Assembly: GCA_963682025.1 (NCBI GenBank)
Contig: OY821519.1
Coordinates: 95,098,585-95,162,584, forward strand
Length of the DNA stretch: 64,000 bases
Direction of reading: 5' to 3'
From: Cordilura impudica
Taxonomy: Eukaryota > Arthropoda > Insecta > Diptera > Scathophagidae
Below are positions 12,051 to 43,717 of the stretch, in pieces (the stretch's first letter is position 1; every line of letters begins with the position of its first letter). The notes beneath the pieces were generated by a model. The model saw only the letters and a program-made list of their open reading frames with translations, was not told the origin of the DNA and did no database searches. The translations under genes and the position numbers were made by a program.

Positions 12051-12059
12051 GAATTTTTA

Positions 12060-19016: not shown

Positions 19017-19295
19017 CTGAAATAAAAAATAATACAACTGTATCTTTTAATTTGTATAAATGGACATTGGCTACTCATTGTCGAGTTGCAATTGGGACAC
19101 GCCAGTGGGTATGAACGATACCTGCACTATTCCGAATATTATACATTTGTTGTACTCAATCTTTAAATTTATTTTTACTTTTTTACCATGTAGGTTTCGG
19201 AGAAGAAAAATTTTCATATTTCAACTTATCATATGACCCAATAAAAAATATAAAAAAGTTCTAAAAACATTTTAAAATTTTCCGATTCTGACATA

Positions 19296-21541: not shown

Positions 21542-24382
21542 CACAGTGGCCAATTTGGCTTCGCTAGCGGCATTTTATTCATAGCTTCCAAAGTAAAGAA
21601 GATATCTTCAAAATTTTTTCTCAATTCAGAAAAAAATCAAACAATTTTTGGAAAAAAAAAATAAAATTTTTTTTTTTTTTTTTTAATTTTTAATTTTTTT
21701 TTCTTTTTTTAATTTTAAATTTTTTATTTTTAATTTTTTTTTAATTTTTTATTTTGTTTTTAATTCAATAAAAATTTTTCACCATATATTCATATATAAA
21801 ATAAGAAAAAAATTGTCAACTCAAAGAGAAACCATATTATAAAAGAAATATTAATCAGATTCTTCAGTATCAGATTCAGAGAAATCATCTTCAAAATGAT
21901 GCATTATAAGCAAGCTTTTAACTTCCTTATCGAAACTAATATTTCTGGAATAGGAAATTGATGAGCCGTTGGACAATGAAGATATTAAGGGATCAGAAGA
22001 AACAAAAAGAGCGTTAATTATATCTTCCATTGTATTTTTCCTGCAATTTTTTCTGGTATTATTTTCACGGATGTTCCGATAATCTTTATTTCTGGCTTCA
22101 AGCGCTTCCTCGGACATCATACCAATTGGAAGCGAAAAATGATTGATTATGTCTGCTCCATGAATTAAAATTCTGTGAACAGACGAGGGCATGTAAAACC
22201 AAGGGTATAAACTAACAAAAATTTCGGCAGTTTCCATTGCGTAAAGTCTGAATGCCTCCGTGTTTATATCATATCCACATGCAAGTGCTCGTAAGACGAC
22301 GCTGAATCGATATATTAAATTTTCGTTCACTCCAGTTATACGAGCGGCTAAATCTGGTTGTTGAAAGAACCTTCTTGCCGTATTTCCGTTGTTGGTATTT
22401 CCAGTAACAGCCATTGGTATGTCGACCAACAAATGCATTTCTTCTCGTAGCTTCTGCTGTATATTTGTTTTATTTTGTCCAACAATATCCTTGTCAGCAC
22501 CACGAGTTTGCCACTATTTTATTGGTATTCTATAGGATATGTGCAAAATACATTCAAAAAACCTTATCCAGGCGTGGAAACTGGATAGCCCATATTGAAA
22601 GAGGTTCACTTTAATTGGAAAGTTCTTCACCAAATTTAAGTCATTAATTTTTTTCGGTGTTGCGTTGCAGATTCCGCATATTTGCGAAGAAGATTCTGAA
22701 ATGACGCTGAAAGTTTTACCATCAAGCATGGTCATGTGAAATTGGTGATCAATAACCAATGAGTTTACATATGTTGGTACAATATTTAATATTTGGCTCT
22801 TAATATTTTCAATTTCCCTGTGACTCAGGTCCGCCGTTTCCTTCTCGCAAAGTATTTTGATTGGTCGACAGTATCGTGTAGAAGAAGGTCGATTGTTTTT
22901 CTATAAAACTGTCGGTCCGTTCTGCACTTGCAGTGGTACAATACAAATTGAAAATAAATATTGGTCTCTCATGTTTCCTTCGCAGTCCTTAAATTTTTGC
23001 CTATATGTGGAATGGCCGCTGCTGCCATCACAACCCCATTTGTATACAGCAGTTAAATGGATGTTATTATTACTTGTAGATGGGATTTCAAAACTTTCAG
23101 GGTGTGCTTCCATGATCCTATTTATTGTATGGTCCACAAGACTTTGTAGTGGCACTTCAGCATAATAATCAGTGACTGTAATGTCACTAGGATAGCACTT
23201 TTTTTTGGCGAAGCGTAATTTTTCGTAGCATGGATATATATCGGCGTTTTGGTTTCTTGCTGATTTCTTGTTCAAGTTCCAAGTGTATCTGGTATGTCCA
23301 AGATCTACAAATAGCGCAACCGCTTTATCGTCCGAAAATTTTGATGGGAGGGGCTTTGGTTTGTTTATATTTTTTATTACCTTTCCGCTAAACTCCTCAT
23401 CGCCATTTACCATTTCTACAACTTTGGAAGCACTGCGCTTTCCAGCTTTATATAAACTGCAGCTTGCAGCTACCAACAATCCTTCACATGACACTTCCTC
23501 TGTAAGCCCTGACATCTTATTGACTTGCGTTTTTCTGCAGCACTCGGAAAGCTCTTTTTCCGGTCGTCCAATATTTTCATTTGCTTTTTTTCCCAATAAT
23601 ACCAATGGTGTATCTAGCCATTCTTGGTTAATTTTTTCGAAAAACACCTTACTTCTGCCACAGGCCTTCCAGCAAAATTTCGCAGTTTCCTTCCAATTTC
23701 GCACTGCTCCTTCTGAGTATAGGTAATTTTGCTTAAAACGGTACCAAAAACATAATTTTCCACGGCGAGAAACTTCTTGGTGGGGATCGCTTCTTCATGC
23801 CGTATTAAAAAAAGGGTGCGTTTTGACACTGACATTTTGCCTAAAAAGTACAATAAATTGAAGGGTCGCAGGTACTCGCAGTTAATTTTGGACATTTTGG
23901 ACACACAATGGTTTACACATATAGGAAAATTTACAAATACACTGAATGCAGGTGAATTTTGTAAGTTCTACTCCACGAAAGACAGGTGTACGTTACAATG
24001 GGCGAGTTGCTAATACACTTAAACACAATTACGTTTTATAAATAACATAAGTATACACAGATCACAACCATAGTTTTTTTATAAAATACATACCTTGGCG
24101 TTAGTATATAACAAAACTTTTAATGAAAATAATAAAATTTGCAAGTTTAACACGAATAGCAAAACGATGATCAAAAAGGCGGAAATATTTTGCACAACAC
24201 TTGCAGAAACATATGCTGACTTTGACAGCTCACAGCTGTTCATCAGCTATAAGCTGAGCTTTTAAAAATCGATACAAATCTAGTGAATGTATTTGTTATC
24301 GATTGTTAAAAAAAAATTAACGGTTTTTCAAATTTGGAAATTTGAATTAAATGCCGCTAGCGAAGCCAAATTGGCCACTGTG
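21542..24382 (-). mobile_element. Transib-type transposon 1 (RAG1-like)
   Basis: A 2841-bp element flanked by 5-bp duplications CTTCG (21537-21541 and 24383-24387). Both ends start CACAGTGGCCAATTTGGCTT and match for about 34 bp (continuing CGCTAGCGGCATTT). CACAGTG is identical to the V(D)J recombination-signal heptamer, and a 5-bp GC-rich TSD is characteristic of Transib. There is no obvious A-rich nonamer in this copy. A long T/A-rich tract (21640-21790) separates the left end from the coding region. Confidence 0.88.
21851..23895 (-). pseudogene. Transib transposase, copy 1
   Basis: Reads from ATG 23895 (MSKINCEYLRPFN), shifts frame near 23650, then stays in one frame to the stop at 21851, interrupted by two in-frame TAG codons near 22900 and 22513. 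Landmarks: GRPEKELSECCRKTQ; KWGCDGSSG with the first catalytic Asp (about 23035); RPSSTRYCRPIK just after the first TAG; FHMTMLDGKT and QICGICNAT (zinc-binding CxxC-like, about 22670); FHAWIRFFE; GNTNNGNTARRFF (about 22390), where the second catalytic Asp is Asn; VHRILIHGADII with the paired His; MSEEALEARNKDYR with the catalytic Glu (about 22105); SSDPLISSL. Similarity to the RAG1 core is by motif order. The Asp-to-Asn change alone should abolish cleavage. Confidence 0.85.
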
Positions 24383-24387
24383 CTTCG

Positions 24388-25720
24388 CTCTGAACAGAAA
24401 TTTGGTTTATTACTCATGACAATTTAGTCTGTCAAAATTCGAGATGGAAAATTCCATGAAAAACTCTGAAAATCGAGATTAATCATTGCTAAACTTGTCA
24501 TCAATTTTATTAGTGCAAAATATATTTTCCGGAAAATTTTTTGACAAAAAAAATCTTAAAGTTAGGCGGAATCAAATTCTTCGGTAACTGACCATATGCA
24601 GTGTCTTAAAATATGAAGGAAAAGAGCGTAAGAGAGAGACAGAGAAAGAGAGAGAGATAGATAGAGAGAGAGAGAGAGGGAGATAATGTGAAAAGTCTCA
24701 CAATATTAATAGTGACGAGCTGCACAATAGTTCGTATGGTGTCTTTGGTGCTACCTCCACTGCTATTGTCAGATATGGCCTCAAATTTTTTCCAGATATG
24801 AAAAAACGAGTATAAAAAAATTTAGCGCGCTGAAAATAAAATAAGTAAAAAACACTACTTTTTGAACACACCTGTGGCCATACCGCATAAAAAAGTAGAA
24901 AATGATATTTTTGTCAAGTTTCAAATCACAGAGATGAAATCAGATTTTTTTGATTTGGACATTTGTCTTCAACATTCTACCTCCTCCTGCAAATTAAGTT
25001 TGCGTCCATTTCTGTAATTAGATTGTGATAAAAAACAACATTTTTGACCTTTTCATTTGGGTTGGTTGGTCTCAGATTTGTTCGAAAACTTTATTTTTTA
25101 ATTTTTTAACTTAAATAAAAAAATTTTTAATTATAAAATTCTAATCGACCTTTTTTTTGAGTTTTTATTTAAGATGTTTTGAAGTAGAAATTACTCTAAT
25201 CAGGCTTTCAAGGTCATGGGTTTCAAATGCAAATAAAAGATTATTCCATTTTTTCAATCCGACGTTTCGTTGGGATTATTCCAACATCTTCAGGGATTTT
25301 GATTTATTGAATCTGGCAATATTTTCATAACAAATAAGAATAATACAATTTAATAACAAGGGAGAACATAAAATCAAGCGAAATTCAAAATTCAACTTAC
25401 ATATAATCTTTATTTGTCAGTTTTACATTTAAAAACTTTTACGTATGTGGTAAAATACGAGTAAACAGCACGACATTAAACACACAATTATTAAAAATAA
25501 ATGTGTAAATATAAAATAAAATAACACAGATTAAACTTTTTCTTAATGTAAGTATCACAGTTGAACTTAAACTAAATTAAACTACTGCTATAGTGTAATT
25601 TGCCTTGGTTTGATCTTTGCCACTTTTTGTATTTATTGCACGAAGTTGTCTTTGTCTTTTTAATTTTTTTTTTAAATTTTAAAAAAAAAAAAAATTTTTT
25701 TTGCTGCCATAATATCACTT
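24388..25720. other. Intergenic with (GA)n tract and a possible retroelement scrap
   Basis: A GA/GATA microsatellite lies at about 24632-24682. 25250-25310 contains CGACGTTTCGTTGGGATTAT next to ATTCCAACATCTTCAGGG, a stretch I have seen near retroelement ends, but there is no ORF to support that. A poly-A/poly-T tract lies at 25660-25700. No gene seen. Confidence 0.4.
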
Positions 25721-25721
25721 A

Positions 25722-26092
25722 AGGCCAGTTTACACTATCACAACCTGTCAAAAAGTCGAATATTATAAAAAAGTCGTATCATGTAAAAAACTTATGCTAT
25801 GATATTGACAGTCCGTAGGATTTTATTTTCGAAGTCCGATGGTTTAAGAAATATTTTCATCGGTAAAAAAGGTAAAAAAAAAAAAACAAAGAATGTGGAA
25901 ATAAAATATAAATTTCAAAATAAATTTGCTTGTTATTCTAAACAGCTGTTTTCATAAGACTTGAGTGTGATGGTGTAAATGGCCTAAGTATGCAAAAATA
26001 ATGTCGGTACGACATTATGACAGTCCGATGAATTTCATCGGATTTTTATTTCGACAAATCATACGACTGAGTGGTATCGTGTAAATGGGCCT
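25722..26092. mobile_element. PIF/Harbinger-type MITE
   Basis: A 371-bp element with TTA at 25719-25721 and 26093-26095. The ends are AGGCCAGTTTACACTATCAC (left) and AGGCCCATTTACACGATACC (right, reverse strand). An extra inverted end-like motif (GATGGTGTAAATGGCC, about 25968-25984) suggests two fused or internally rearranged copies. No ORF. Confidence 0.75.
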
Positions 26093-26151
26093 TTACTAAC
26101 ATTTCTATTTGATATTGAGAACAGAGAATGACAAAATTATCATTTTAAGCA

Positions 26152-29100
26152 GAGCCTCCTATTACTCGAGCTTAAAAATTAACATCGAGTAGTAAAAATT
26201 AACATTTTTCATGTTTGAAAGCATGTAAAAAGATAAATATAAGTATTTAGTATAACAAATGTATACTTTTTGGAATCGTACAAGTACCAAGAATATTATC
26301 CTGAAATTTGACTCGAATCGGACTGTCCTAGTGGCGTGGGCAAACTACTACTCGAAAAAGCTCGACGCCTTTCCATACAAATGTATGAAAATATTCACTT
26401 CATAGATGTTTGGCTTCATTTTAAAAAAAAATTCCCAAAATACATGGTATGATTTTATATATTTTAAAGTCAGTTACACTGGTAGATTACCCTCCTGAAA
26501 TATTAAAACATTCTGATGAAAACTATGGAGTGGGCTAAGTACTACTCGAGAAAGATCATCCACTTTCCACTCAAATGTATGAAAATATGATCTTCGTATA
26601 TGTTTGATGCCAGTTTACAAAAAAAATTTCAAGAACATTTGTCAAAAGCTCTTAGTATTTTAATCTGAATATATGTAGAGAATATGTTTTCAAAATATCA
26701 GAGCATTTCGACAAAAATGTTGGCGTGTGTGAACAACTACTCGAAAAAAATCAGAAATTTTGCAAAAAGTGGAAAAAAATTAAAAAAAAAATTAAAATAT
26801 AAAAATAAAAAATATTTTTTTTTAATTTTTTCAGTATCTGTAATTGACCATATTCATAGATTACTCATAAAAAACTTCCTTCAAGTTTCAAAGCATTCCG
26901 CATTCCAAGCATTGAAGCTTGGATGAACTATTACTCGACAAAAAACAGAAACTAAAAAAAAATATTTTTTTTTTTTTAAATATTCTTTTTTTTTTTAAAC
27001 ATTTTTTTTTAGGAAAAATATTTTTTTTTTTCAACTGCCCGTAATTGACCTTATTCACAGATGAAAATCAAGTCATTCCGATTAAAATTGTGCTCTGGGC
27101 GAACAATTGCTCGAAAAAGGTCAGCCACTTTCTATACAAATGTGTGAAGTTTGATGTAACTTTAAAAAAAATTTCCATCACGACTTGCTAAAATTTTTTA
27201 CTATTTTTAGTTGCAAATATATCGAGATAATCGTCTTAAAATTTAAAAGTCTTCCAACGATAATTGTGCTGTTGGCGAACTACTACTCGATAAAGGATGA
27301 CCACTTTCCATAGAAATATATGAAAAAATTCACTTCATGCAAGTTTGACATCGATTTACAAAAAATATTTAAGGCACACATAGTACAAATTTATATGCTA
27401 TAAAATTGCAAATAAGAGGACATTACGTTCTTAAAATTTCAAGGACTTTCGGTAATAGTTGTGCTTTTGACGCATTTCAACTCGAAAACTGTTTCCATAC
27501 AGATATACGAAAAAATGCACTCCAACCAAGTTTGACATCCATTTACAAAAAATATTCCAGGAACACATGGTATATATTCATAATTCTAAAATTCGAAATA
27601 CGAGGTCATTACGTCCATAAAATTTCAAAGCATTCCACCAATAATTTAGATGTTGGCGAACTACCACTTGATAAAGATCAGCCACTTTCTATACAAATAT
27701 GTGAAAATTTGCTGTTATTTTAAGTTTGATTTGATTTTTAAAAATTTATATGTTTTGAAGTTATAGATTTCAGGAGATTATATCCTTAAAATTTCTAACT
27801 ATTCCAGGGAAAATTGTGGAGGCGGCGAACTTATACTCGAAAAAAATCAGCCACTTTCAAATCTTTTCACCGAAAATGATCAGTCAGTTTCTATACAAAT
27901 GTACGAAAATATGCACACTACACTCTCTCTATATAATTTTCTGATATTCCAATGTTTTAGGAAAATAATCTGTTGATATGAGGGACTACAATATGTATTA
28001 AATTTTACCATGTATTTTTGGAAAATATCTTTTAAAATGATGTCAAACTTCCATGGAGTGAATGTTTTAATTTATTTGTATGGAAAGTGGTCGAGCTTTT
28101 TTGAGTAGTAGTTCGTCCAACCCACAAGTATTGTCGGAAACGTTTGAAATTTAAAAGAAATACTCTCCTTACATTTTCAATTCTAAAAAAAATATAACTT
28201 TTGGCTAAGTCATTATAAAAAATTTTCTGTAAAATTATCTCAAACAAGAAATGCGAGCAAATGTTCACACTTTTGTATGGGAAGAGTCTGATCGTTTCAC
28301 GTAGTAGTTCGTCCGAGCCACAATTTTGGGCAGATTACTTTTGTGTACGTAATGCACTCATATTTTCCACTTTAAAATTCATAAATCTGTTCCATGTGTG
28401 TCTTAAATATTTTTAGCTAAAAAGAAGCCAAAATAAACTTTATGTATTAATGATTTCTTGTAATTTCAGTACAAGGAACCTTGTCATGCGTTCCCGTACT
28501 ACTCACCTTTAACCTCAATAAAAACTAAACTATTGGGCGTATCACCTTGAATTTTCTTTTAAACGATTTTTGACAAAATTCTCTTGGAATACAGGGTAAC
28601 TTTTGGGGTACCTTGTCCTGGCCGAAATAGGAGTAATTTCAGTAATCGATGCCAAACTTGCATGAAGTGAATTTTTTCATATATTTGTATGGAAAGTGGT
28701 CGAGCTTCTTCGAGTAATAGTTCGCCAACAGCACATTTATTGTTGGAATACTTTGAAATTTTTAGAGGATTATCTCGATATATTTAAACTAAAAATAGTA
28801 CAAAATTCTAGGAAGTCGTGATGGAAATTTTTTTTTAAAGTTACATCACACTTGAAATAAGAGAAAATTTGCACACATTTGTATAGAAAGTGGTTGATCT
28901 TCTTAAAGTAGTTGTTCGCCCAGAGCACAATTTTAATCGGTATGACTTAATTTTTTTTATATGAGTCATCTGTGAATAAGGTCAATTATGGGCTGTGAAA
29001 AAAAAAAAATTTTTTTTTTAAATTTCTTCGTTTGAAAAAAAAAATTTTTTTTTTTTTAGTTTCTGTTTTTTGTCGAGAAATAGTTCCTCCAAGCTTCAAT

Positions 29101-30024
29101 TTTTGGCGGAATGTTTTGACACTTGAAATAAGTGTTCTCTTTATATAGACAGCTCTAACGAATATAACTTTTTGTTACGTCATTGTGGAAAATGTTCTGG
29201 AAAATATCATCAAACTTCAACTATTTAAGAGCACACATTTGTATAGAAAGTGGTCAATATCAGTCGAGTAGTGCAATACCGATGCCACAATTTTGGTCGG
29301 AAAGGTTTAAAATTTTTTATGAGTAATCTATGAATATAGTCAATTACAGGCAGTGAAAAAATTAAAAAAATATATATTTTTTTACACTTTTTGCAAAATT
29401 TCTGATCTTTCTCGTGCAGTTGTTCCCACACGCCAACATTTTTGTCCAAATGCTTTGAAATTTTGAAAACATATTCTCTACATATATTCAGATTAAAATA
29501 CTAAGAGCTTTTTCCAACTGTTCTTGACAAATTTTTTGTAAATAGGCATCAAACATATACCAAGATCATATTTTCATATATTAGAGTGGAATGTGGATGA
29601 TCTTTTTCGAGTAAAAATTAGTCCACTCCATAGTTTTTATCAAAATGTTTTAATATTTCAGGAGGGTAATCTACCAGTGTAACTGACTGCAAAATATATA
29701 AAATCATACCATGTATTTTGGAAAATTTTTTTTTAAATGAAGTCAAACATCTATGAAGTGAATGTTTTCATGCATTTGTGTGGAAAGGCGTCGAGCTTTT
29801 TCGATTAGTAGTTTGCCCAAGCCAGTAAGACAGTTAGATTCAATTGAAATTTAAGGATGATATTCTTGGTACTTGTACGATTCCAAAAAGTATATATTTG
29901 TTATACTAAATACTTATATTTATCGTTTTACATGGTTTCAAACATGTAAAATGTTAATTTTTACTACTCGAGCTACTCGTTAAGCTCGAGTGGCTCGAGT
30001 ACTCGAGTTTGACCGTAGGCTTTG
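26152..30024. mobile_element. Foldback-like element with modular inverted arms
   Basis: 3873 bp flanked by a perfect 10-bp direct repeat ATTTTAAGCA (26142-26151 and 30025-30034). The two halves are diverged inverted copies centred near 28080; for example 26471-26510 (around GTAGATTACCCTCCTGAAAT) pairs with 29646-29687. Each arm is a series of about nine diverged modules of 170-200 bp. Left-arm modules carry GCGAACTACTACTCGAAAAA then CCACTTTC(T/C)ATACAAATGT; right-arm modules carry the reverse complement. The termini contain CTCGAG-rich sequence and end in AGCCT. No ORF above about 100 codons, so it is non-autonomous. A 9-10 bp TSD with long modular inverted repeats fits Foldback elements of the Mutator-like group. 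Confidence 0.82.
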
Positions 30025-30246
30025 ATTTTAAGCACTCTTAAAGTATTTATGGTCAAACATGTATGAGTGAGTGTTGTTAAAAAAACGATACCCATACACA
30101 ATATATTCAGACCGACTGTAACTTAAATAACTATTAATTTTTTTGCAACCAGAACACAAAGGTCGATGAAGCTCACTTTTTTTTTTTGTCCAAGAAAAAC
30201 TAAAGACACTGAATTTTTGAGTGCCATCATAAAAACCTGAATATTT

Positions 30247-31127
30247 ACACCCTATACCACTACATATGTATGTGATTTGGGTATAATGACTTTGTGCTGC
30301 TGTTTGTAACTACCAAAAATATTTGACCTAGACCCATCTTTTATTATACCGATCGCCTCAGAATCACTTTCTGAGTCGATTTAGCGATGTCCGTTCGTTC
30401 GTCCGTCCGTCCGTCCGTATATAAGCTTTTGTCGGTCATATGATTAACGCTATTGAAATTGGAAAAATTCGATCCATGTTCAGACCTAGTCCACATATAA
30501 ATGACCCCTATGAAATCGACTTAAATTGCCATAAGATCCAAATTATCATATAGATCTCGGTCCGTCCGTCCGTCCGTCCGTATATAAGCTTTTGTCGGTC
30601 ATATGATTAACGCTAATGAAATTGGAAAAATTCGATCCATGTTCAGACCTAGTCCCCATACAAATGACCCCTATGAAATCGACTTAAATTGCCATAAGTT
30701 CAAATTATCATATAGATCTCGGTCAAATTGACTTTGTGTGTGTTATTACATCTATTTATCATTTGTCCAAAAATAAACCCCATATGGCAATTCTTCCCGA
30801 TTTTCACCTAAATCTATCAAAAAACAAAAATATTGCACAGATTTTTTCTCAAATTTGGTTTGTATATATTTTTTCAAAATATAAGTGACTTTACCAAATA
30901 AGGTCAGGATCGGTCCATTTTTCGACCTAGTCCCCATATAAGTAGCGCATCCGATATGAACTTTTTCATATCTGCAGCTAAAAAATTAATAACAATGCCA
31001 CTCATATTTTAGTTTATGCTTATTTTCTATATCTAGTTGCAGCGAAGAGACAGGGTCTCTAAACCATGGTATAGGGTATCGTATAGTCAGTCTAGACCGA
31101 CTATAATTTTCTCACTTGCTTTTAAAC
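30247..31127 (+). repeat. (CCGT)n-core dispersed element with internal duplication
   Basis: Starts ACCCTATACCACTACATATG and ends with the palindromic segment AGTCAGTCTAGACCGACT (about 31084-31101). About 163 bp, from the (CCGT)n tract through TATATAAGCTTTTGTCGGTC to TCATATAGATCTCGGTC, is tandemly duplicated (first copy 30398-30560, second 30561-30722) with few differences. The rest resembles 56275-56912 and 62921-63835 inverted. Confidence 0.7.
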
Positions 31128-32129
31128 TATTGTTATTCACTTATTCTTTTTTTCTAAATTAATGTTGAAAAACTATATTTTTCAAAAACACTTATGTACA
31201 TCAAATAGATATGAGAAATAGAAATTATCTACCCGGACCATTGAAATGCATGAAAATGTGAGACAGTTACTGCAGAGTTTCGTTTAGGTGACTTTGCCGC
31301 GATATTTTGGACAAAAAACGAATTTCTAGAGAAAAAAATTATGCTGCATTTCTCTTAATTAAACAATTCTCTACAAAACTGCATCATTACATTTTTGATA
31401 TTTTTACACTCGAAAATTACACTTATCAAAATCCAAAGTGAGACGTGTTAATGAGACACTAAATGATGTTTTCCCCACTTCAACTTTTATTATTAGTACC
31501 ATTCCAGAACATGATATCTGACCTATCTGTTTGCAGTGCTAAGTTTATACCACAACTGCTATACATAAATATGACAAAGAATATACAACAATTTTGAAAG
31601 AAACAATTTTTTGTGGTTACAAGTCAGTATACACTGTGACCTTTGTTTATATGTATGTATAAGTACTGTTATTCTACATTTCTTTTTTTTTTTTTTTTTT
31701 TTGCTCTAACCTTACATGAACCAAATCCTGAGAGAGCTAAGCAGCAATTTTGTGAAACACAACAAAAGCAAGATGTATAAAAAAAATAAATAAAGAAAAT
31801 ACGAAAAGTAGATTATTGAATAACAAAATATTTAAGAAATGTCGTAGATTCTATGGATTTATGTAATTTGTTTTCTCTATTTTTTTTATTTTTTACTTTA
31901 AAGGCTTATGCCAGATGACGTTAAATCTCAATAGACAACATACTTAAAAACCACATTACTTATGTAAGAGTATTAGGGTAGTTATCAAAATTTTGCTAAA
32001 CAGTAGAAAAAAGTCCCGAGATACTCTGAAAAGTATGATTGGAAACAAAGGGATTTTCTATGGTAATAATGTTTTGTTTAAGCCCTGATAAATAGTAAAA
32101 AAAAAAAAATATTACAAAATTGTAATAAA
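31128..32129. other. Intergenic, no gene seen
   Basis: AT-rich DNA with a 22-base T-run at about 31681-31702 and an A-run near 32099. No ORF, repeat boundary or RNA gene recognised. Confidence 0.5.
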
Positions 32130-32449: not shown

Positions 32450-32526
32450 CAGTATTCGCAGCAAGTTCAATTGTTTCATTATATTAATAGTAGTGAACTT
32501 TAAATTAGCATAATACGGCAAATATT

Positions 32527-33356
32527 ATGCGTTTCCTTAGCACCACAATTGTTTTAGTAGCCATATGCTGTTTGGCTGTGGCTGGACATTCGCATCATGG
32601 TCATGATGATTCTGGACATGGTGGCAAACATACTGAGGAGGTAAGCTACGATGTAGCACACGCACACGATCACGGAGGACATGGCGGTGGTCATGATGGT
32701 GGCCATGATGACGGTGGTCATAAGGATGGTGGACATGATGATGGTGGTCATAAGGATGGTGGTGATAAAGATGGTGGTGATAAGGATGGTGGTCATAAGG
32801 ATGGTGGACACGGTCATGGCCACGATGACGGTCATGATCATCATGCCTATCCTAAATATGAATTCGATTATGGTGTTAAGGATACAAAAACTGGTGACAT
32901 TAAAAGTCAAAAAGAACAAAGAGATGGTCATAAGGTTGAGGGTAAGTTTCTAAAAAATATTTCAATTTTCATATATCAAATTAGTTTCAACTGAATCCTT
33001 CATGTATGTAGCTTCTGAATAAGGTTGTGAATATCAGCTGGCTGGTTGTCACAACCATTTCATTTGCTACACAGGATCTAAAGTAGTTTAAACATTAGAA
33101 TTGGTTTTAACTAGTTTCCGTTTCTATTTATTTTCTAGGCAGCTACACACTAAAAGAAGCCGACGGCACAACCCGTCACGTAGAATATGCTTCCGATAAA
33201 AAGAAAGGTTTCACAGCTACTGTTCATAAAATCGGCCATGCTCATGCTGACCACGGATCCTCTCATGGACATGGACATGGACATGGAGATGGCCACCATG
33301 ATGGCCATGCTAGCAGTTATGTTCATATCAAAAAACAAGAAGAAAAGAAACACTAA
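32527..33356 (+). CDS. RR-2 cuticular protein, Asp/Lys/Gly-His linker (gene 4)
   Basis: Exons 32527-32941 and 33139-33356 predict 210 residues. Donor G|GTAAGT, acceptor TTTTCTAG|GC, phase 1, intron 197 bp and homologous to that of gene 2. Signal peptide MRFLSTTIVLVAICCLAVAG. The linker differs from the paralogs: the unit (H/D)KDGG, as in HKDGGHDDGG and DKDGGDKDGG, repeats about eight times, adding alternating charge. The RR-2 domain runs YEFDYGVKDTKTGDIKSQ to SYTLKEADGTTRHVEY and GFTATVHK, with a longer tail (HGHGHGHGDGHHDGH) ending VHIKKQEEKKH. This is the most diverged member. AATAAA at 33371-33376 lies only 15 bp after the stop; the 3' UTR blocks of genes 1-3 are absent and an A-rich tract follows (33411-33445). 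Confidence 0.93.
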
Positions 33357-33664
33357 TCACGGTCGATTGTAATAAATGTACACAACGAAACTTGATGAAG
33401 AAAATATGCAAACAAAAAAAAAAAACAAAAAACAAAAAAAAAAAATTGTAAGTTATCTGAAAAATATATGAAATTAATGCTTTAAAATTTGCAATTTTGC
33501 AAGATCTTTTTGCTTCACTTTTAGTTAATTTTTTTTACAATTAAATTTGCATTAGTAAAATATTGTAGGGAGAGTGGGTATTAAGTTGTTTATTATTATA
33601 AAAAGTAAACAATTGTTATACTCAACTGTAAAACTTATCTTTTAGTATGGGTTCGAACAAGATA

Positions 33665-34097
33665 TATCTGTGGTCACAAGCATTAACCGCCTAAGTCGAA
33701 AATCATGCTTTCGAAAAAAACAACTTTTTATATAAATGTAATGATTCATCATTACGACTTAGGTCAGTATATTTTTATTAATATCTTTTTTAGTAAATAG
33801 TGTTAGAGAAATGGGTATTTCATGTAAATATAAAGCGTTTTTAGCAGAACATGATAGCATACGTAACCCAAATCGTCGAATATCATGCTTTTGAGAAAAA
33901 TAACTTTTTATATAAATGTAATGAGGCTTCATTATGACTTAGGTCAGCATGTTTTCATTAATAACTTTTTAATAAAGAGTGATAGAGAAATGGGGATTTT
34001 ACGTAAATATAAAGCGTTTTTAGTAGAATATGATAGCATACATAACTCAAATCATTCTTAAGTCGACTTAGGCGGTTATCGCTTGTGACCACAGATA
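33665..34097. mobile_element. TA-flanked MITE with internal tandem duplication
   Basis: A 433-bp element with TA at 33663-33664 and 34098-34099. The ends TATCTGTGGTCACAAGC and CCGCCTAAGTCG (33665-33698) are inverted at 34064-34097. Between them a unit of about 180 bp (starting ATCATGCTTT, containing AACTTTTTATATAAATGTAA) occurs twice, at 33702 and 33882. 34100-34250 holds a fragment of the TATACCCTCCACAC repeat family. Confidence 0.75.
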
Positions 34098-35043
34098 TAC
34101 TCAACTACTTAAGTAATAGGCTGATCTGCTCTGTTTATTTCTGATCCAATTTAATTATAAACTTAGAGAGTGGTATTTATATACCCTCCACACCACTGTG
34201 CAGAGGGTACATATCAGAGACCAGCAATGAATCGTTTTTTCGCTCTGATGTAAAGGGTTTTTCAATAAGAGCGCTACAAAAGTTTTTTTAAATAAAACAA
34301 AAACGGTTTTGGTTATCAATGAAATTCTTTATTCCTGTGAAAGTACGTTCGATGCCATTATGTATGGAAATCGATCTCTTTTGCATGGCCACCATGGGCA
34401 CGCTTGCAGAAGTCCAGACGCTGAACCCAATTTTCGACGGTTTTCAAGCATAAATCGGCCGATAGTGCTGCAATTTCACGTTCGATATTCGTACGAAGTT
34501 CATCAATCGTCGCTGGCTTGTTGGCATAGACCATAGACTTGACGTAGCCCCACAGGAAATAGTCCAACGGCGTCAAATCGCACGACCGAGGCGGCCAATC
34601 GACTGGACCATTTCATGAGATAACACGATCTCCAAACATGGTTTCCAATAAATTGATTGTGACATTCGCTGTGTGGCCTGTGGCGCCGTCCTGTTGGAAC
34701 CACATGTCCTTCAAGTCCATATCATCCAATTGGGGCCAAAAATATTCGGTTATCATTGAACGGTAGCGATTCCCATTCTCAGTAACGTGCCGGTCTTGAT
34801 CATCACGGAAGAAGTACGGCCCAATGACGCCGCCGGCCCATAAACCGCACCAAACCGTAATTTTTCGGGATGCAATGATGACTCATGGAGTACGTGTGGA
34901 TTGCTGTCTGACCAATAACGCATATTTTGTTTATTGACGAAGGCATTCATCGAGAAATGAGCGTCATCGCTGAAGATGATTTTTCGATGAAAATCCGAAT
35001 CATTTTCAAATTGTTGCTCAGCCCAATTCACGAACATACGACG

Positions 35044-38000
35044 CACAGTGGCGCCATTTGAGTTTTTTCGTTGCAAAAATCATATCTTTTGAACCGAATA
35101 ACATAATTGAACAGTTTAAACAGCATATGATAGATAACTGTTCAGCCTATGAAATGAGCGTTTGGAAAGGGTGCTACGCTTTGTAGGAAAATCAATTTTA
35201 TGGTAACTAAAAAAAATTATTTTTACATTTTTAGAATGTTTTTATTTTTTTTTTTTTAAATTAGTACCCAACAAATTAAAAAAAAATTACTTCTTTTTTA
35301 AATTTATTTTTTCAATTTTCTGTAAAATATTCATCACAATTCGTAAGAGAAGGTATATCTAAAAGACTAATCATTTCTAAACTATAATTGTTTTCTAACT
35401 CTATTCGTGACTTCACATGCCGCAGGGAAGAAATAAGTGGATCGGAAGATGCTGCCAATATGTTGAAGAGGTCCTCATTTTGCCTTACTCTTGATGCTTT
35501 GAATTTGTTTCTGCAATTTATATTTTTTATAAAATTTGTTAAGAGACTCCTGTGCTTCTTCAGAAAGCTCTCCAATTGGCAAAGACTGGTACTCAATTAT
35601 ATCTTTGCCATGCGCCAATATTTTATGGACGGTCGGGGTCAACTTCTTCTGTGGATACATTTCTGCTAAAAGAGATGCAGTTTTCGATGCATATTCACAT
35701 ATTTTGTAGAATTGACATTTTTTGCAGTTTAAAACATTCAAGATCGTTCCCAATCTTTTCACGATTTGATTGTCAATTCCAGTGATTCTAGTTACTGCCT
35801 CATCATTTTCAAAAAATCTCCTAGAAGTGTTTCCATCGTTTGAGTTACCGTATCCGTGCTTGGGACAGTCTACTTTTAGTCCAACTTGTTTAAAAAAAGC
35901 ATCCTGTATTTGCTTCTTTCTGATCTTTTCCTTATCCTTTATTGATGTATTTTCATCGAAGTTTTCCTCCTCTTGTGGTAGGGTATACGCCAGTTTTAGC
36001 AAGAACTCCATACACCTTATCCTTGCGTGCAATGGTGACATTCCATATTCGTAATTCTCCTCGTTTGTAGAATCGTTTAAATTACCAAAGTTCTTCTGAC
36101 TCTTTTTGCAAATCGGGCATAACAATGTTGAGGTTGTTCCTGTCAGTTCGTTTACGACTTTTCCGTCAACCATGGTCAGGTGGAACTCGTAATTGCATTC
36201 AATATATTTTCCTTCTCCAATTTGCAGCTTTGTAGGCTTAATCTTGCTTATTTGTTCTTCAATGTCCTTCACCGTGGTCCTTATGAGTTTTGCCGATTCC
36301 CTTGCAAATTGAAACATTATTGGTCGGCAATAATGCACTGATGATGGACGTGGATTTTTCCAGTGTAAGGAAACATCAGATTTTAGCCGCAAAGGAACAA
36401 CAGATGCCATAAACATATTTCCGTCGGATATTGTAGCGTCATCGGAAGATATCCTTTGCTTATAAACGCTTTGTCCGGATGATCCATCGCAGCCCCATTT
36501 GCTGGTCAATGTCAGTTTCTCAGGAAGAATTTCAGGAAGACTCTCCAACAACCGTTTTGCTGTATGGCCCATGAGATCCTGCAGATTGGCTTTCACAGAG
36601 ACTTCCGTGAACTCCGTATGCAGTGGTCGTGAATTTATTTTGGCTTGCGTAATATGCTTGTATCCTGGTAAAATGTCAGCCCCGTGTCGCATCAGGGATG
36701 CCCGTAGTATCTCATATTTTTCTTTGGAAAGTTGTAAGTCCATAAACAAGGCCGAGGCTTCTTCGGAACCATACTTTTTAATGTGTGCGTTTGTGTGCGT
36801 GGGAATGCTTTCCTTAATCCTTTTTAGTCGCAGTGGGCTTGCATCAGCAACAGATTTTGTAATCTGCGACCTAACTCTTTCACTATCCTTTGTATATTTA
36901 ATAGACAGCGCGTCCGATAAAAGCTTCGTGGTCAAGTCATTGGCGGCATCGGCAAGTTTCCTCTTTCTTGTGAAAATTGAACACTCCTCAATACTTTTTT
37001 TTGGCCTTCCTTTTGCTCCTCTGGTTGATGTGGTGGGTTTATCTACTGCCAATATATCCAGGATGGTGTCTTCATTAAGCCAGTCCTCGTATTTGGAGTT
37101 GAAGTTCTGAATGGTTCGATTAGATTTCACCCATTTTGCCTTAATATTTGCATATATCAGATAAAAATTATTTTTTATTATTTCGCTTCTCTCAATATTT
37201 CCGTATAAGCTATCAAGTTCTTCTAAAGCAGCTTCCGTGAAAAACTTTGGTGTGGTTGACCTTCTGAACAGTTCAAATAATTTTAAATTGTTTAACGCCA
37301 ACTTTCAGTCGTAGACTAATCCAGGCATTATGCTTATTTTGCAATATATAGGCTTATGATACCATGCCTAAAAATTTACCTGTTCCCTGCATACATATGG
37401 ATTTAGGTTGAATTATGCAATTTTGATATTATGCTCGTGTCTAAATAAGATTTGTGCCTACCTGGAGGGACCATAAGTCAATATTGTTCTTGACCATTTG
37501 TACTCCAAAGTAATTTTTAAGTGAGGTGCGTACCTGCGAATTTCAATGAGTAGTTTTTTGTGCATCCTGTGTCTGTAACAGAATATTGGGAGTAGACTTT
37601 GGCAGAGGCTCACAGGTAGACAACCGACTTAAAATGCAATTTTCAAACTATTAGATCAAACTACTGTCAGTCAAAACATGTAAGGGATGCACGCCATACA
37701 ATTTCTGCAACCATGTCTTTTTAACCTTTTTTACCTCTAGAAGCCAAACGGGCACGTACGGGCAGATAAAACATTTTGAATTATGTAAATAATCAAAGAA
37801 CATGTTTTGCAAATATGGCAAATATAGAAAAATACAGATTTTTTTTTATTTTCCGTTAAAGTTGAAAAATAGTGAAAAAACGGATAGTTTTTAAATAGTG
37901 ATTTACCAGGAGAAACACAAAGAAAACAAATTCAAACAAAAAATAAGGCGATTCGTTACCTATTTTTCGTGATATTACACCTGAAATCGCAACAAATTGA

Positions 38001-38205
38001 CTAAAAATTGTGTGTTTTTTTGAAAACCGAAAGTCGGTCAACTTTGAACGGTTATATCTTCTAAACTAAAAATATGATATTATTAAGAGTAGCATATTTG
38101 AAATCGTTGAAAAGTTTCTTATAACATGGGTTTATTCAAAACTTCGTCGGCGCACATGAAAATTTTGATTTTTGCAACCTCGTTTGCTCTACGGGCGCCA
38201 GTGTG
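35044..38205 (-). mobile_element. Transib-type transposon 2 (RAG1-like), nearly intact
   Basis: 3162 bp, flanked by a perfect 5-bp duplication CGACG (35039-35043 and 38206-38210) that interrupts the mariner codons RR|MF. The left end is CACAGTG (35044-35050), a 22-bp spacer and GCAAAAATC (35073-35081). The right end on the reverse strand is CACACTG, a 23-bp spacer and GCAAAAATC. The spacers share GCGCC and TT at their edges. This heptamer-spacer-nonamer layout resembles a 23-RSS. CGACG fits the CGNCG target consensus reported for Transib. Confidence 0.93.
35312..37328 (-). pseudogene. Transib transposase, copy 2, almost full length
   Basis: ATG at 37328 gives MPGLVYD, then an in-frame TGA (37307-37305). 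A 608-codon open frame follows (37301-35475, numbered here from TTG 37301), then a 1-nt frameshift near 35500 into the last ~60 codons ending at 35312. Landmarks: basic GAKGRPKKS (95-103); SKWGCDGSSG with Asp272; MFMASVVPLRL; SVHYCRPIMF; FHLTMVDGKV; LLCPICKK with Cys395/Cys398; LHARIRCMEF; GNSNDGNTSRRFF with Asp489; TVHKILAHGKDII with His559/His564; LSEEAQESLNK with Glu585; SSDPLISSL in the shifted frame. Asp, Asp and Glu, the Cys pair and the His pair (five apart) occur in the order seen in RAG1. Only two lesions separate it from an intact transposase. Confidence 0.9.
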
Positions 38206-38939
38206 CGACGTTTCTGGTGGTCAAGCGGCTTCAGTTCTTGCGTCAATTTGATATTGTTAGGATGTAGGCCAAGATCTTTTCGCAAAATTCGCCACAACGA
38301 CGTCACAGAGATGCCCAACGCTTGAGAACGACGTGTGAGAGACACATTTGGGCTTCCTTCAACTCAAGCCTCAGCAGCAACAATATTCTCGACACTACGG
38401 GCACCTCTTTGTCTCACTGGCACGGGAACATTTTGTACTATGCCTGTGGATTCAAATTTTTCCACTAGACGCTCAATTGTTGAACTGCTAGGACGATTAT
38501 GACTACCATAAATTGGACGTAGCGCTCTTAACGTTGAGGCCACTGACTCTGAAATTCGGTAGTAAATTTTAATAATTTCGACTCGTTGTTGGCTCGTATA
38601 TCTTTCCATCATGAAATGGCAAACCTTACTGAAGAGAAATGTCAAAAGAGCGGCAAGAAATATGGCGTCGTTTGCTGTCCCTGTCTTTCTACTTTTGTAG
38701 CGTCCCTGCTGAAAAACCCTTTACTACTCTGATGCACTCATACTTACACTAACATATATTTATGAGTGTAACTTTATGAGTATCGTACCATCCGAAATCA
38801 TAAAAAACACCTCAGTTTGATTTATAAATTTAGGAAAATACTTATAACACTTACAATTGATTCAACTCATTCACCCCATCGATGTACAAATGCATGTATA
38901 TTTTTACACGTATACTACATGGAGTGAAAACTACATGGC

Positions 38940-39263
38940 CTAACAATGAAAAGCCAGTTTTTGGATTTGATATTAATTCTATTCTTCAACGTAATCTCCG
39001 TTAAGTGAAGTACACTTCTTCCCACGATCCTCTAACATCTTGATACCCTTGAAAAAATACGATTTGTCAAACCCTTAAAAATAGGCTTCTGTCTCTGATA
39101 TGGCTTCTTCATGTGTAGAAAATCTCTTTCCCTGGAGCCATTTTTTCAAGTTTAGCAACAAATAATAATCGCTGGGAACCAGATCTGGAAAATACGGGGT
39201 TGGGGAAACAATTCGTAATGCAAAGACTTCAACTTTTCTGAAGCCAAAGCATGAATGCGCCGC
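38940..39263 (-). pseudogene. mariner transposase C-terminal relic
   Basis: The minus strand encodes HDNALAHSCFGF across the Transib junction (its first codons lie at 43633-43645, beyond the Transib), then YFPDLVPSDYYLLLNLKKWL, GKRFSTHEEAISETEAYF and GDYVE-like sequence. This is the DD34D mariner C-terminal block with Asp in HDNA and Asp in PSD. Nothing of the N-terminal half was found. 38724-38939 shows no feature. Confidence 0.7.
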
Positions 39264-39879
39264 ACAGAGGACCATATTTTGAGAAGGCGGCCAAAAATCA
39301 TTTTTTTTTTTTTTGTTACCGATTTTAAAGTTATGTTATTCATTTGAAAGTAAATACTAGTAAACCACGGGAGCCAAAAAATTGCGACTCTATCTCAACT
39401 ATATCACAGCGAACAGGGTCTTCGAAAATGGGCTTTCTCAGTATTTTGCTAAAATTAAAAATTTTCTTTGTAAATTTTTATTTTTGAATGACTGTAACTT
39501 TTTTCAGTTAAAAGATTTTGAAGTGAAATAAATTTTGTATAATTTTGTGGCTTTTATACTATTAACGTTAAAAATGTAAAATCACTGAGTCATTCCGAAA
39601 TTTAAAAAAAAAATTTTTTTTAAAAGGTCCAATTTTTCCGAAAATCTCCTACTTAATAGAGCATAACATCTGCCAGTCAAAAGCATTCAGAAAAAATCTT
39701 GCACTCTTCTACAGTCCGAACCCTCCCCTATACTCCTATACCCCATTATACACCCGCCAGTTTCCGCCCGTGTGCACCAGAACAATTTTTCTGACCCAAG
39801 GTTAAATATTTTCTGCAAAATTTATGAATACAAAACTTGTCCACTATGTGGTTAGGATATATTAAGTTTGAGGTGATGT

Positions 39880-39990
39880 TTGTAACTGCCAAAAATATTC
39901 GACCTTTATCCATCTTTTATTGTACGGATCGACTCAAAAACACTTTCTGAGTCGATTAAACGATGTCCGTCCGTCCGTCTGAGTGTTATG
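39880..39990 (+). repeat. (CCGT)n-family fragment
   Basis: A short piece of the dispersed family: AAAATATTCGACCTTTATCC, TTCTGAGTCGATTAAACGAT, then (CCGT)2-3. It sits inside Transib 3. Both ends are truncated. Confidence 0.6.
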
Positions 39991-40210
39991 AATACAAAAG
40001 TTGGTCGTACCGGTGCACCGCGGTGTATTTTTTGCGTGTCGGTAGAGTTGTCAGGAGTTGTTATATACTTATAAAAAAGGGTTGAGATATAATGCGCTTA
40101 ATTGTTACAGGTACATTTACATATAGGTATCTTTCAAAAACATTAATAGTCTGAATTAGAGTTATATAGTTTAAATACCTGACAAAATGGGAAACAATTT
40201 AAATAACAGG

Positions 40211-40463
40211 TAAATGGTAGAAAAAAACTATTGCGACATAGCTCTTTAAGATATGAAAAGGTATGCTTCACCTTTTAAAACGGGTTAGGGTGTGGGTTTT
40301 TTATGCTTCTAAAAGTGGTAATAAAAGATAAAAATTTGTAAATGGTAAAAAAAACTATTGCGACATAGCCCTTTAAGATATGAGCAGGTATGCTTCACCT
40401 TTTAAATGGGGTTAGGGTGTGGGTTTTTTATGCTTCTAAAAGTGGTAATAAAAGATAAAAACT
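40211..40463. repeat. 128-bp tandem duplication upstream of the Transib 3 ORF
   Basis: Two adjacent copies starting TAAATGGTA (40211 and 40339), each containing ACTATTGCGACATAGC, AGGTATGCTTCACCTTTTAA and GGGTTAGGGTGTGGGTTTTT. They end just before the transposase start at 40502. They could be a duplicated promoter segment (inference). Confidence 0.8.
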
Positions 40464-40501
40464 TTTATTTTACATAATTTCAAGAAAGAGTATTTATAAT
40501 A

Positions 40502-42554
40502 ATGTTTCCACAATTATTATTCATTACAATTTGTGCAATGGCTAAGTACTGTTGCAGAGATCTGGCAGATATTTATTTTCAACGAAATGATGTAGACGAT
40601 GTAATTTTGCATATAGTGAGCAACGACTTCTTTAAGAATTGTAACCTAGAAGACATTGAAATGCACAAAGGAAGAATTACTAATTTTGCATCGAATTTGA
40701 AAAGACGGTACATTGAATGCTCTCATAGCAAGGCAAAGATGTACAAACGTTACCAAGACTGGTTAATAAAGGAACTTATTTTTGAGAGTGCATCTAGAAC
40801 TGCAAACGAAAGTGGAAAAAAGGGTCGACCAGCAAAACCAATTGACGGATGTAGTGAAAGATCTCGAAGGCGCAAGCTGGAGAATATCAATGAAGAAATT
40901 TCTCAAAGAATTATTAAGGATTAATTTTTGCACCAAATTCAAACAACCCAAAAAAAAAAAAAAATTGAAATAATTGAAAAAATAGTAGAAGCGAGCCCAA
41001 GGCGCACAAAGAGGATTTTGAAAAGCACATTCCTACACCAATTGAAGATAAGAAATTTACGCCGGAAGAAGCGTTAGCCCTATTTTTGGATTTGAAATTG
41101 ACCAAAAATCAATATAAGGAATTACGGAAGCGAACCAATGAGAAGAATTGTGGGATTTTTCCAGAGTATCGAGATTTAGTTTCTGCCAAAAAAGAATGCT
41201 TACCTTCACAATCTGCTATTAGCATCACTTCAACATCGGCAGAAATAAAATTGCAAGATCTCCTTGAACATACTGCAGAACGATTGCTAAATACGCTTGA
41301 TACTGATCATTTAAAAAAAATTGGTAATCGCAGCGTTACTTTAATTTCTAAATGGGGATGTGATGGATCCTCTGGTCAGAAACAATACAAACAATTTAAT
41401 GCTGAAAATTCATTAGATGCTAATTTATTTATGGTATCTTTCGTTCCATTGCGCTTAACAAAAAGGTATAGCGTCTTCGAGCCGTCAACTAGTAGAGCAA
41501 CAGAAATTGATATATGGAAAAATGAAATTCCTTCTTCAACAAAGTATTGCAGACCAATAAAATTTGCATTCAAAAAGGAAACCAAAGATGTCATAACTGA
41601 AGAAGTTCAAAAAAATAAAAGATCAAATTAAGGAACTTCAACCAGTAATATTTAAATTTGATGACCAAGACATTGAAGTACATTTTAAAATGTGTCTCAC
41701 AATGATTGATGGAAAAGTTGCACAAGCTTTAACTGGAACAAAGTCAACGTCAAGCTGAATTACATGCCAAAAGACTTCAAGTCAATTAAGCCAATCCCCA
41801 CCAGAAGACGATAGTTTTTAGGAAGCCTACGAAGTTGGAATGTCATGCTAGAATATGTTTCATGGAACATATTCTTAAATTGGGTTACGATTTGGAATTT
41901 GGTCCGTTAGGCGAAACAGTGATAAAAAACAAAGAAAATGAAGAAAAAAGAAAGCAAAAAAAAAACAAATTCAACAAAAATATCTACAGCTAGGCCTCGT
42001 AATCGACCAACCAAAACAAGGGGAAGGAAACACAAATGATGGAAATACTGCAAGGAGATTTTTTTCCGATCCGGAAACTGCAGCATCTATCACAGGTGTA
42101 GATCATGAATTAATAAGACGATTCAAAATCATATTACAAGTTCTAGCATGCAGCAGAAAGATAAATGCAAAAAAATTTGGAGAGTACGCCAATAAAACAG
42201 CTATACTTTATAATGAAAACTACTCTTGGAGATATATGCCACAGCTCATAAAATTTTGTACCATGGGGAACAAATAATTCATAACAATATGCTACCAATA
42301 GGAGATCTATCTGAAGAAGCGCAAGAAAAAAGGAACAAAGACTACAGATTCTTTCTCGAGCACAACACAAGGAAAATGTCCAGATGTTGTACTAATGAAG
42401 ACCTTATCACTATTTTGTTGTGCACTTCAGATCCATATATGTCCAACATTCGTCAAAAATGGAAAACTACCTCGAATTAGACGAAGAAGCTAAACAACTT
42501 CTAGAAGATGAAAATCAAGGCTATTTAGAAGAAATTTTTACTAAAATTGGTTGA
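40502..42554 (+). pseudogene. Transib transposase, copy 3
   Basis: ATG at 40502, open to 40924, then a frameshift at an A-run (about 40950). Pieces in order: KKGRPAKPIDGCSERSRRRK (40813-40875); PEEALALFLDLKLTKNQY; SKWGCDGSSGQKQYK with the first Asp (about 41360); KYCRPIKF; after a second shift near 41625, HFKMCLTMIDGKVAQALTGT; a decayed CxxC region with stops; GNTNDGNTARRFF with the second Asp intact (about 42045); ITGVDHELIRRF; AHKILYHGEQII with the paired His (about 42240); GDLSEEAQEKRNKDYR with the catalytic Glu (about 42320); TSDPYMSNI; end EEIFTKIG at TGA 42552-42554. All three catalytic residues survive, but at least five lesions disrupt the frame. Confidence 0.85.
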
Positions 42555-42807
42555 TTTAAAGTACTTTTTCATTACACTAACAATAAGTTACACTTTTTTT
42601 ATATAGTTAAAAAATTTTCTTGATTTAAAAATTTATATATTTTGTAAATTTACAATAAAAATTGTTATATTTCATAAATTTACCATAAAAATTGATATAG
42701 AAATATTTAAAAAGACAATAAAAAAAAATTTAACTAAAGCAAAAACATACGAATTGAAACTTCTCTATCTTGAACCAATATAAGGTAACTTTTACGTTCG
42801 CTGCTTA

Positions 42808-43264
42808 GTCGCAGTTCACACACGACGATTTTAGTTGCGCAATTCTTGAGTTTATAGATGTTTGCGGTAAGGGGAATAAAAAGGGAAAAATAATTGGCGG
42901 TTCTCGGCTATTTCAAGCAATTCTCTCATTCGCTTTTTTTTTTTGGTTGAATATTTGACATTTCTTTTCATTCGGTGTTTCGCTTCTTGGTGTGAGTAAT
43001 TCGTAATTATTGTTTACTTTATTAAAATGGCGTTTAAATGGAATCTGGATTTAATTGAAAAATTAATAACCATTGCATTTATTATGTTAAATGCAAAGAA
43101 TATTTGGATCGGGACTAGAGCACAAATGTCATATTATAAGAAAATAAAAGCAAAACAAAACAGTAAAATTGCCGAAGAAATTGTCGTGTGTGGACATAAA
43201 AGCAAGTTCAAAAGAGAATTGCCAAAAAGTTGCGCAATAAAAATTGCCTTGTGTGACCCCCGAC
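42808..43264 (+). mobile_element. PIF/Harbinger-type element with possible MADF-like ORF
   Basis: 457 bp, with TTA at 42805-42807 and 43265-43267. The ends are GTCGCAGTTCACACACGACG (left) and GTCGGGGGTCACACAAGGCA (right, reverse strand), both leading into TTGCGCAA. It is nested in the 3' part of Transib 3. Confidence 0.7.
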
Positions 43265-43323
43265 TTAATAAATTATATTTTAACTCGGGATCGTTCAAAA
43301 AAAAAAAAACCCCTCTGGACTAA
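43027..43323 (+). pseudogene. Possible MADF/Myb-like fragment of the Harbinger element
   Basis: A 98-codon frame from ATG 43027: FKWNLDLIEKLI, then NIWIGTRAQMSYYKKIKAKQ and KIAEEIV resemble the start of a MADF/SANT-type DNA-binding domain (W..ELIEKLI...W......Y.K...). PIF/Harbinger elements commonly encode such a second protein, so the context fits. The frame then runs through the right inverted repeat, so only the first ~60 residues are meaningful. The domain call is tentative. Confidence 0.4.
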
Positions 43324-43717
43324 AAATTTTACGGGGGCCAAAGTTTGGCATTTTCTGAAAAAATTAAGTTAAAAAATTGTTAAAAAGTATTAGTTGTAAA
43401 ATTAACTGAAAAAATAAGACATTATATTAAAAAAACCTTTTTTAAAAACACTTCACTTTTGTACTAAAGTTCAACTACAAATGAAAATGTATTTTAAATC
43501 CTCCGTAACTTTTTTTTATTAAAGGCTAAAGTCTCACCTACCAAACAAAAAAAACCGCATATCAAAATTCCAATCCAATCAAAAGTTATAGATTTTTGAC
43601 CGCCTTCTCGTCAAATGGTCCACTGTGCGCCAGTGCATTGTCATGTTTTTTTTATAATTTTTTCTTAATTTTACCGCTTTTTATGATTTGATGATTATGC
43701 TGATTTTATAATTTCAC

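What the first reader, a model, noticed from the sequence alone, without database searches (positions are those of the whole stretch)
21542..43627. Three Transib (RAG1-like) elements, each with 5-bp TSDs, in 22 kb
Three elements with distinct ends (21542-24382, 35044-38205, 39264-43627) carry transposases with the same motif order as the RAG1 core: Asp in CDGSSG, CxxC, Asp in NDGNT, His-x4-His, Glu in SEEAxE. TSDs are CTTCG, CGACG and CGCCG/CGCCA. Two sit in mariners whose reading frame is restored on removal. Different ends and proteins imply three subfamilies, not one burst. This density of RAG1 relatives in one locus is striking.
Basis: partly seen in the sequence, partly recalled or inferred. 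Interest (0 to 1): 0.85.

Follow-up and report, generated by a model that had tools for sequence, protein, structure and literature searches.

The report
Three Transib transposons in an insect
The three elements are real Transib DNA transposons, distant cousins of the enzyme that shuffles vertebrate antibody genes; they are ordinary members of a known kind, but two of their families are very abundant in this insect genome and such elements sometimes sit end to end, sharing one insertion scar.

Summary
E1 21542-24382, E2 35044-38205 and E3 39263-43627 (one base earlier than stated) have CAC-starting inverted ends and 5-bp flanks CTTCG, CGACG and, imperfect, CGCCG/CGCCA. All three encode transposase cores like Hztransib, a solved Transib transposase (window copies); matches to RAG1 are far weaker. 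One motif is misread: the second catalytic Asp lies in TM(I/V/L)DGK, before CxxC, not in NDGNT. Three lineages is supported. E2's empty site is shown in 6 of 6 fetched host copies. The density is not striking: E2 and E3 have about 3,600 ends each in 1.49 Gb, which predicts about a dozen such 22-kb clusters by chance. This abundance departs from a published statement that autonomous Transibs usually have one or a few copies, though no intact copy was seen. Further finding: 157 places hold two CACAGTG-type ends separated by 5 bp, against 3 for the control. Of 10 outer flanks tried, 7 were readable: 5 equal the shared 5-mer, 2 differ by one base, which fits insertion into existing target duplications. 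Known kind, new families.

The parts
21542..24382 (-). E1, Transib element, 2841 bp, coding strand minus
   Evidence: inverted ends CACAGTGGCCAATTTGGC..., 92% identical over 51 bp; 21 full-length places at 92-100% identity, itself included
21537..21541 (.). E1 left TSD CTTCG
24383..24387 (.). E1 right TSD CTTCG
22064..23338 (-). E1 transposase core, one frame with stops (ORF pieces 22901-23704 and 21851-22438)
   Evidence: (39% to the Hztransib core, 6.7e-101)
35044..38205 (-). E2, Transib element, 3162 bp, coding strand minus
35039..35043 (.). E2 left TSD CGACG
38206..38210 (.). E2 right TSD CGACG
35475..37301 (-). E2 transposase frame (608 aa); copy L011 reads Met where this copy reads Leu at the likely start, and the tail departs from relatives
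34251..38723 (-). host element of E2 (bounds read by eye from inverted TAAAGGGTTTTTCA ends; E2 inside); Tc1/mariner-like by recalled motifs
39263..43627 (+). E3, Transib element, 4365 bp including a 456-bp nested insertion
39258..39262 (.). E3 left target copy CGCCG
43628..43632 (.). E3 right target copy CGCCA
41056..42360 (+). E3 transposase core in three frame pieces (41056-41604, 41621-42238, 42238-42360)
   Evidence: 2.95e-70 to the Hztransib core
42808..43263 (.). 456-bp insertion inside E3, absent from 6 of 7 other E3 loci (L018 uninformative)
39075..39260 (-). mariner transposase remnant left of E3

Best explanation
Three copies from three separate families of the Transib superfamily. 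Each family encodes or encoded a DDE transposase that pairs the two CACAGTG ends, cuts with hairpins on the flanks and inserts at 5-bp sites (CGNCG for E2 and E3, CRNYG for E1), leaving 5-bp duplications. The E2 and E3 families have expanded to thousands of ends; a target taste shared among such elements makes them sometimes land in the 5-bp duplication left by an earlier one, giving end-to-end pairs that share one 5-mer. Shown: homology, catalytic residues, ends, TSDs, empty site for E2, end counts, junctions. Inferred: cut-and-paste with flank hairpins (from Hztransib and RAG), and the order of insertion at junctions.
For: Window copies against the Hztransib core: E1 6.7e-101, E2 1.6e-78, E3 2.95e-70 in three pieces. 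Against the PDB: window E2 1.1e-74, E1 copy L046 2.1e-109, E3 copy L023 1.4e-84, Hztransib first each time. A profile of 30 proteins with one row per family finds Hztransib at 4e-190, RAG1L at 1.1e-14 and RAG1 at 1.5e-9 at best. Hztransib D126 and D225 (numbers from a passage of PMC6941560; chain offset of 17 inferred) fall on D in 6 of 6 rows of these families and the E1 sister; E436 on E in 4 of 6, a gap in L011 and K in L023. TSDs: 20 of 21 E1 copies perfect; 14 of 20 E2 left ends next to CGN(C/T)G; 13 of 20 E3 right ends next to CGNCG. CGNCG is a published Transib target (passages of PMC4735498 and PMC5704228). Empty site 6 of 6 for E2. 3627 E2 left ends, control 0; 3660 E3 right ends, control 0. 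Junctions 157 against 3; outer 5-mer equal to the shared one in 5, one base different in 2, outer end not found in 3, of 10 tried.
Against: No complete transposase frame of about 660 aa, the length of relatives such as P0002 and P0121, was seen in 37 loci (21 E1, 8 E2, 8 E3, some of them cut short; longest stop-to-stop frame 609 aa), so present activity is not shown. E3's flanks differ by a base and its empty site is untested. Pfam has nothing above cut-off for the six pieces except the Tc1-type one; an E1 piece has a sub-threshold RAG1 match (14.7 of 25 bits). PF26100 is listed for many relatives, but the Pfam copy searched did not return it for P0001, P0002 or P0010. Of the arms at 20 junctions only 21 of 40 match an E1-E3 end from the first base; the rest are other CACAGTG-ended sequences not shown by protein to be Transibs.
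Confidence: 0.95

Rival explanations
1. The elements are RAGL/ProtoRAG-type transposons (RAG1-like with a RAG2-like partner) rather than Transibs.
For: Weak sequence matches to RAG1L 6b40 and RAG1; shared order of catalytic and zinc motifs.
Against: The Hztransib E-value is about 69, 104 and 83 orders of magnitude better than the best RAG-type match for E2, E1 and E3; all three lie among insect proteins in the tree, although RAG1 itself was not in that tree.
Confidence: 0.02
2. The end-to-end pairs reflect an active preference of the transposase for existing Transib ends, beyond the CGNCG taste.
For: 157 junctions; 4 of 100 exact E3 right ends abut another exact end, above the 0.4-2.1% that random re-use of CGNCG sites predicts for assumed totals of 7,287-20,000 elements.
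Against: 0 of 100 exact E2 left ends abut; random re-use predicts 31 to 420 junctions, which brackets 157; the total number of such elements is not known.
Confidence: 0.2
3. The end-to-end pairs come from end joining or recombination between elements, not from insertion.
For: In E2 copy L015 one end lacks bases after the heptamer and the middle CGTCG differs from the right CGACG; L134 joins two like arms; 12 of 50 listed junctions have another 5-mer than CGNCG.
Against: 38 of 50 listed junctions have exactly CGNCG between the ends; the outer 5-mer agrees with the middle one in 5 of 7 and within one base in 7 of 7 readable cases, 3 of 10 unreadable.
Confidence: 0.07

Closest known systems
Hztransib (Helicoverpa zea Transib; PDB 6pqn and related entries)
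   Same: transposase core 39% (E1), 36% (E2) and 37-60% in three pieces (E3) identical, same DDE positions; CAC ends and 5-bp TSD (recalled for Hztransib)
   Different: separate lineages in the tree; ends start CACAGTGG; thousands of ends here for E2 and E3
Drosophila Transib1-5 and the Drosophila obscura protein P0151
   Same: E1 clusters with insect proteins including P0151, 54% identity over 70%
   Different: Transib1-5 sequences were not fetched, so assignment to them is untested
RAG1 / ProtoRAG RAG1L
   Same: CDG, D before CxxC, HK..LAH and the S-E-NE-NK region aligned by profile; CACAGTG equals the RSS consensus heptamer (recalled)
   Different: remote in sequence; RAG2 not looked for; no sign of domestication

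Membership tests
Transib superfamily | DDE transposase homologous to Hztransib with D126, D225, E436 equivalents | tested here: met
   E missing in copies L011 (gap) and L023 (K)
Transib superfamily | CxxC and H-x4-H zinc motif | tested here: met
   C305 and C308 invariant, H472 and H477 in at least 90% of 30 rows
Transib superfamily | terminal inverted repeats starting with an RSS-like CAC heptamer | tested here: met
   CACAGTG in the families; E3 left in the window is CACAGAG, E2 right is CACACTG
Transib superfamily | 5-bp GC-rich target duplication, CGNCG type | tested here: met
   published CGNCG; window E3 has one mismatch
Transib superfamily | cut-and-paste with hairpins on flanking DNA | not testable with these tools
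   known for Hztransib (passage of PMC6941560); inferred here
RAGL / ProtoRAG | closer to RAG1/RAG1L than to Hztransib | tested here: not met
RAGL / ProtoRAG | linked RAG2-like gene | not tested
   no RAG2 profile was run

The most novel reading that the evidence does not exclude
In this genome Transib transposases actively prefer the 5-bp duplications beside existing Transib ends, beyond their CGNCG taste, so that thousands of elements of at least four CACAGTG-ended families are building end-to-end arrays of RSS-like CACTGTG-CGNCG-CACAGTG pairs that could move as composites or recombine like paired signal ends.
Probability: 0.18. Interest if true: 0.6.

Novelty: new member of a known kind. 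Interest (0 to 1): 0.36.

Why it matters
A published account says autonomous Transibs usually sit at one or a few copies per animal genome for reasons not understood (passage of PMC4411706). Here two families have about 3,600 ends each, and 15 of 20 and 16 of 20 sampled ends still carry transposase-region DNA, several with deletions. So this insect is a natural case for asking what lifts that limit, although no intact copy was seen among the loci read. The many copies also give large samples of RSS-like ends and target sites for comparison with RAG. The cluster in the window itself is ordinary.

Tried and rejected
Considered and rejected: RAGL membership. Chance origin of ends plus TSDs. One burst with diverged ends. 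Special clustering of Transibs in this locus. The first-look counts of 612, 1734 and 7572 candidates were not used as copy numbers: E3 contains a dispersed repeat at its positions 579-725 that occurs at five other places in the window. Pfam gave nothing above cut-off for the transposases; Rfam nothing in 20000-45000. The 2005 Transib paper was asked for under two ids and is not held. Papers: passages only of PMC8355894, PMC4411706, PMC6941560, PMC4735498, PMC5704228 and PMC12230796. A first comparison of family ages used unlike measures for E1 and for E2/E3; it was redone on one measure, which replaces it.

Not obtained: E1 end count, E3 empty site, E2 core count, and abutting counts for E3 and E2 ends over the whole genome; the genome search did not complete. 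From, 33 long places at 92-100% identity were scored among 40, the other 7 belonging to a 76-77% sister family, which suggests that E1 is a low-copy family; this is not a count.
Full report
What is there. The window lies in a 1.486-Gb assembly of 855 contigs. Among named proteins the best match for E2 is from the gall fly Eurosta solidaginis (P0010, 58% over 66%); for E1 the named ones are Drosophila obscura (P0151, 54% over 70%) and then Eurosta (P0154, 60% over 60%). The host is therefore probably a fly; this is an inference. Three elements were checked base by base. E1 (21542-24382) has near-identical ends of about 35 bp starting CACAGTGG and the duplication CTTCG. E2 (35044-38205) has short ends CACAGTGGCGCC / CACACTGGCGCC and the duplication CGACG. 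By eye, E2 and E3 carry an AAAAATC-containing nonamer-like stretch 21 to 23 bases after the heptamer, close to the 20-22 bases described for symmetric Transib ends (passage of PMC8355894); E1 shows none by eye.

Is it more than chance. A scan for such ends with equal 5-bp flanks returns only E1 and E2 in 64 kb and nothing in 50 simulated windows. Twenty of 21 full-length E1 copies have perfect 5-bp duplications. Read by eye, five of six E2 loci with both ends legible (L015 apart) have equal 5-mers, and L012 differs by one base. For E2, six fetched copies of the same host element lack the insertion and show one target 5-mer, CGACG in five and TGACG in one, with no gap at the junction (six of 40 places scored). 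E3's empty site could not be tested.

What the proteins are. The three window copies match the Hztransib core at 6.7e-101, 1.6e-78 and 2.95e-70; Hztransib is also the best PDB match for window E2 and for one other copy each of E1 and E3. A profile of 30 related proteins gives Hztransib 4e-190, amphioxus RAG1L 1.1e-14 and RAG1 1.5e-9 at best. In the alignment the three catalytic positions known for Hztransib fall on the D of CDGSSG, the D of TM(I/V/L)DGK and the last E of SEEAxE. That motif comes after CxxC, and the E1 family has NNGNT there, so it is not the catalytic Asp. In the tree of 46 rows the three families fall apart with strong support. RAG1 was not in the tree.

State of the copies. 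E1 in the window has stops in its core frame; E3 has its core in three frame pieces and a 456-bp insertion; E2 has a 608-aa frame, but where copy L011 reads Met at the likely start this copy reads Leu, and its tail departs from relatives. No frame of about 660 aa was seen among 37 loci, some of them cut short. Measured alike as substitutions only, the median difference between copies is 2.0% for E1 (210 pairs), 2.7% for E2 and 4.1% for E3 (28 pairs each). All sets were chosen as best hits to the window copies, so the hint that E3 spread first and E1 last is weak.

Abundance. Patterns for one end, with up to two mismatches, give 3627 places for E2 and 3660 for E3, against 0 for the reversed control in each. 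Of the first 20 exact E2 ends, 15 have transposase-region DNA where expected, some with deletions; L081 is rearranged and four have none. Of the first 20 exact E3 ends, 16 have it, four of these (L100, L103, L107, L111) with a large deletion reaching into the transposase; one has a nested E1, and three others lack it. These first-listed ends on contig C1 are not a random sample. For E1, 33 long places at 92-100% and 7 of a 76-77% sister family make up the 40 scored; a full count was not obtained. PMC4411706 states that autonomous Transibs are typically present in one or at most a few copies (passage); this genome departs from that in numbers of long copies, though intact ones were not found.

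Is the cluster special. With 7,000 randomly placed elements about 12 windows of 22 kb with three or more are expected; with 10,000 about 33. Among the 100 listed exact E2 ends 3 of 99 gaps are shorter than 22 kb, 2.7 expected. The cluster is therefore ordinary.

Targets. E1 targets read C(G/A)N(C/T)G with C before and G after as the commonest bases. E2: 14 of 20 CGN(C/T)G, of which 9 CGNCG. E3: 13 of 20 CGNCG. Published Transib insertions use CGNCG.

End-to-end pairs. Three of the 20 E3 flanks (one, L116, with a heptamer changed by one base) and E2 copy L015 had another such end just beyond the 5-bp target. Genome-wide, CACTGTG-N5-CACAGTG occurs at 157 places against 3 for the reversed control; 38 of the 50 places listed have CGNCG in the middle, 12 do not. 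In 20 fetched junctions 19 join unlike arms and one, L134, like arms. Of the 40 arms 21 match an end of E1, E2 or E3, or a relative of them, from the first base, and 16 of 20 junctions have at least one such arm; a further recurrent family starting CACAGTGGCTGAAAAT is also involved, and a few arms are unassigned; none of these others was shown by protein to be a Transib. The outer 5-mer of one partner was sought in 10 cases and found in 7: equal to the middle 5-mer in 5, one base different in 2. This fits insertion of one element into the target copy left by another. Random re-use of CGNCG sites predicts 31 to 420 such pairs over the assumed ranges, so no special preference is needed; 4 of 100 E3 ends against 0 of 100 E2 ends leaves room for one.

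Verdict. The parts of wider interest are the abundance of two families and the shared-target pairs.

Noticed in passing
window 42808-43263: 456-bp insertion inside E3, absent from 6 of 7 other E3 loci; both sides read CTTA by eye.
   Followed up: partly
window 40210-40340 and 40338-40467: 131-bp tandem duplication at 94% identity inside E3, upstream of the transposase; also seen in other E3 loci.
   Followed up: no
window 39841-39987, also 17104-17169, 30269-30403, 50519-50606, 56821-56896, 63724-63820: A dispersed repeat of up to about 140 bp lies inside E3 and at five other places in the window; it inflates first-look counts for E3.
   Followed up: partly
L006; L042 and L095 (C1:6163349-6167127): An E1 copy lies inside an E2 copy (L006) and, by position, another inside an E3 copy: Transib in Transib.
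   Followed up: partly
L003, about 4344-4530: The end of an E1 copy with its TSD and flank is repeated about 180 bp further on, a local tandem duplication.
   Followed up: no
L134: Two like arms (54 of 60 bases) of a further CACAGTG-ended family face each other across CGTCG, a near-perfect palindrome.
   Followed up: no
window 20025-20579: Tc1-type transposase fragment with Pfam HTH_Tnp_Tc3_2 (1.2e-18) near E1.
   Followed up: no
window 32527-32994: Frame rich in His, Gly and Asp, ending in a sequence like a cuticle protein (name recalled, not searched; frame).
   Followed up: no
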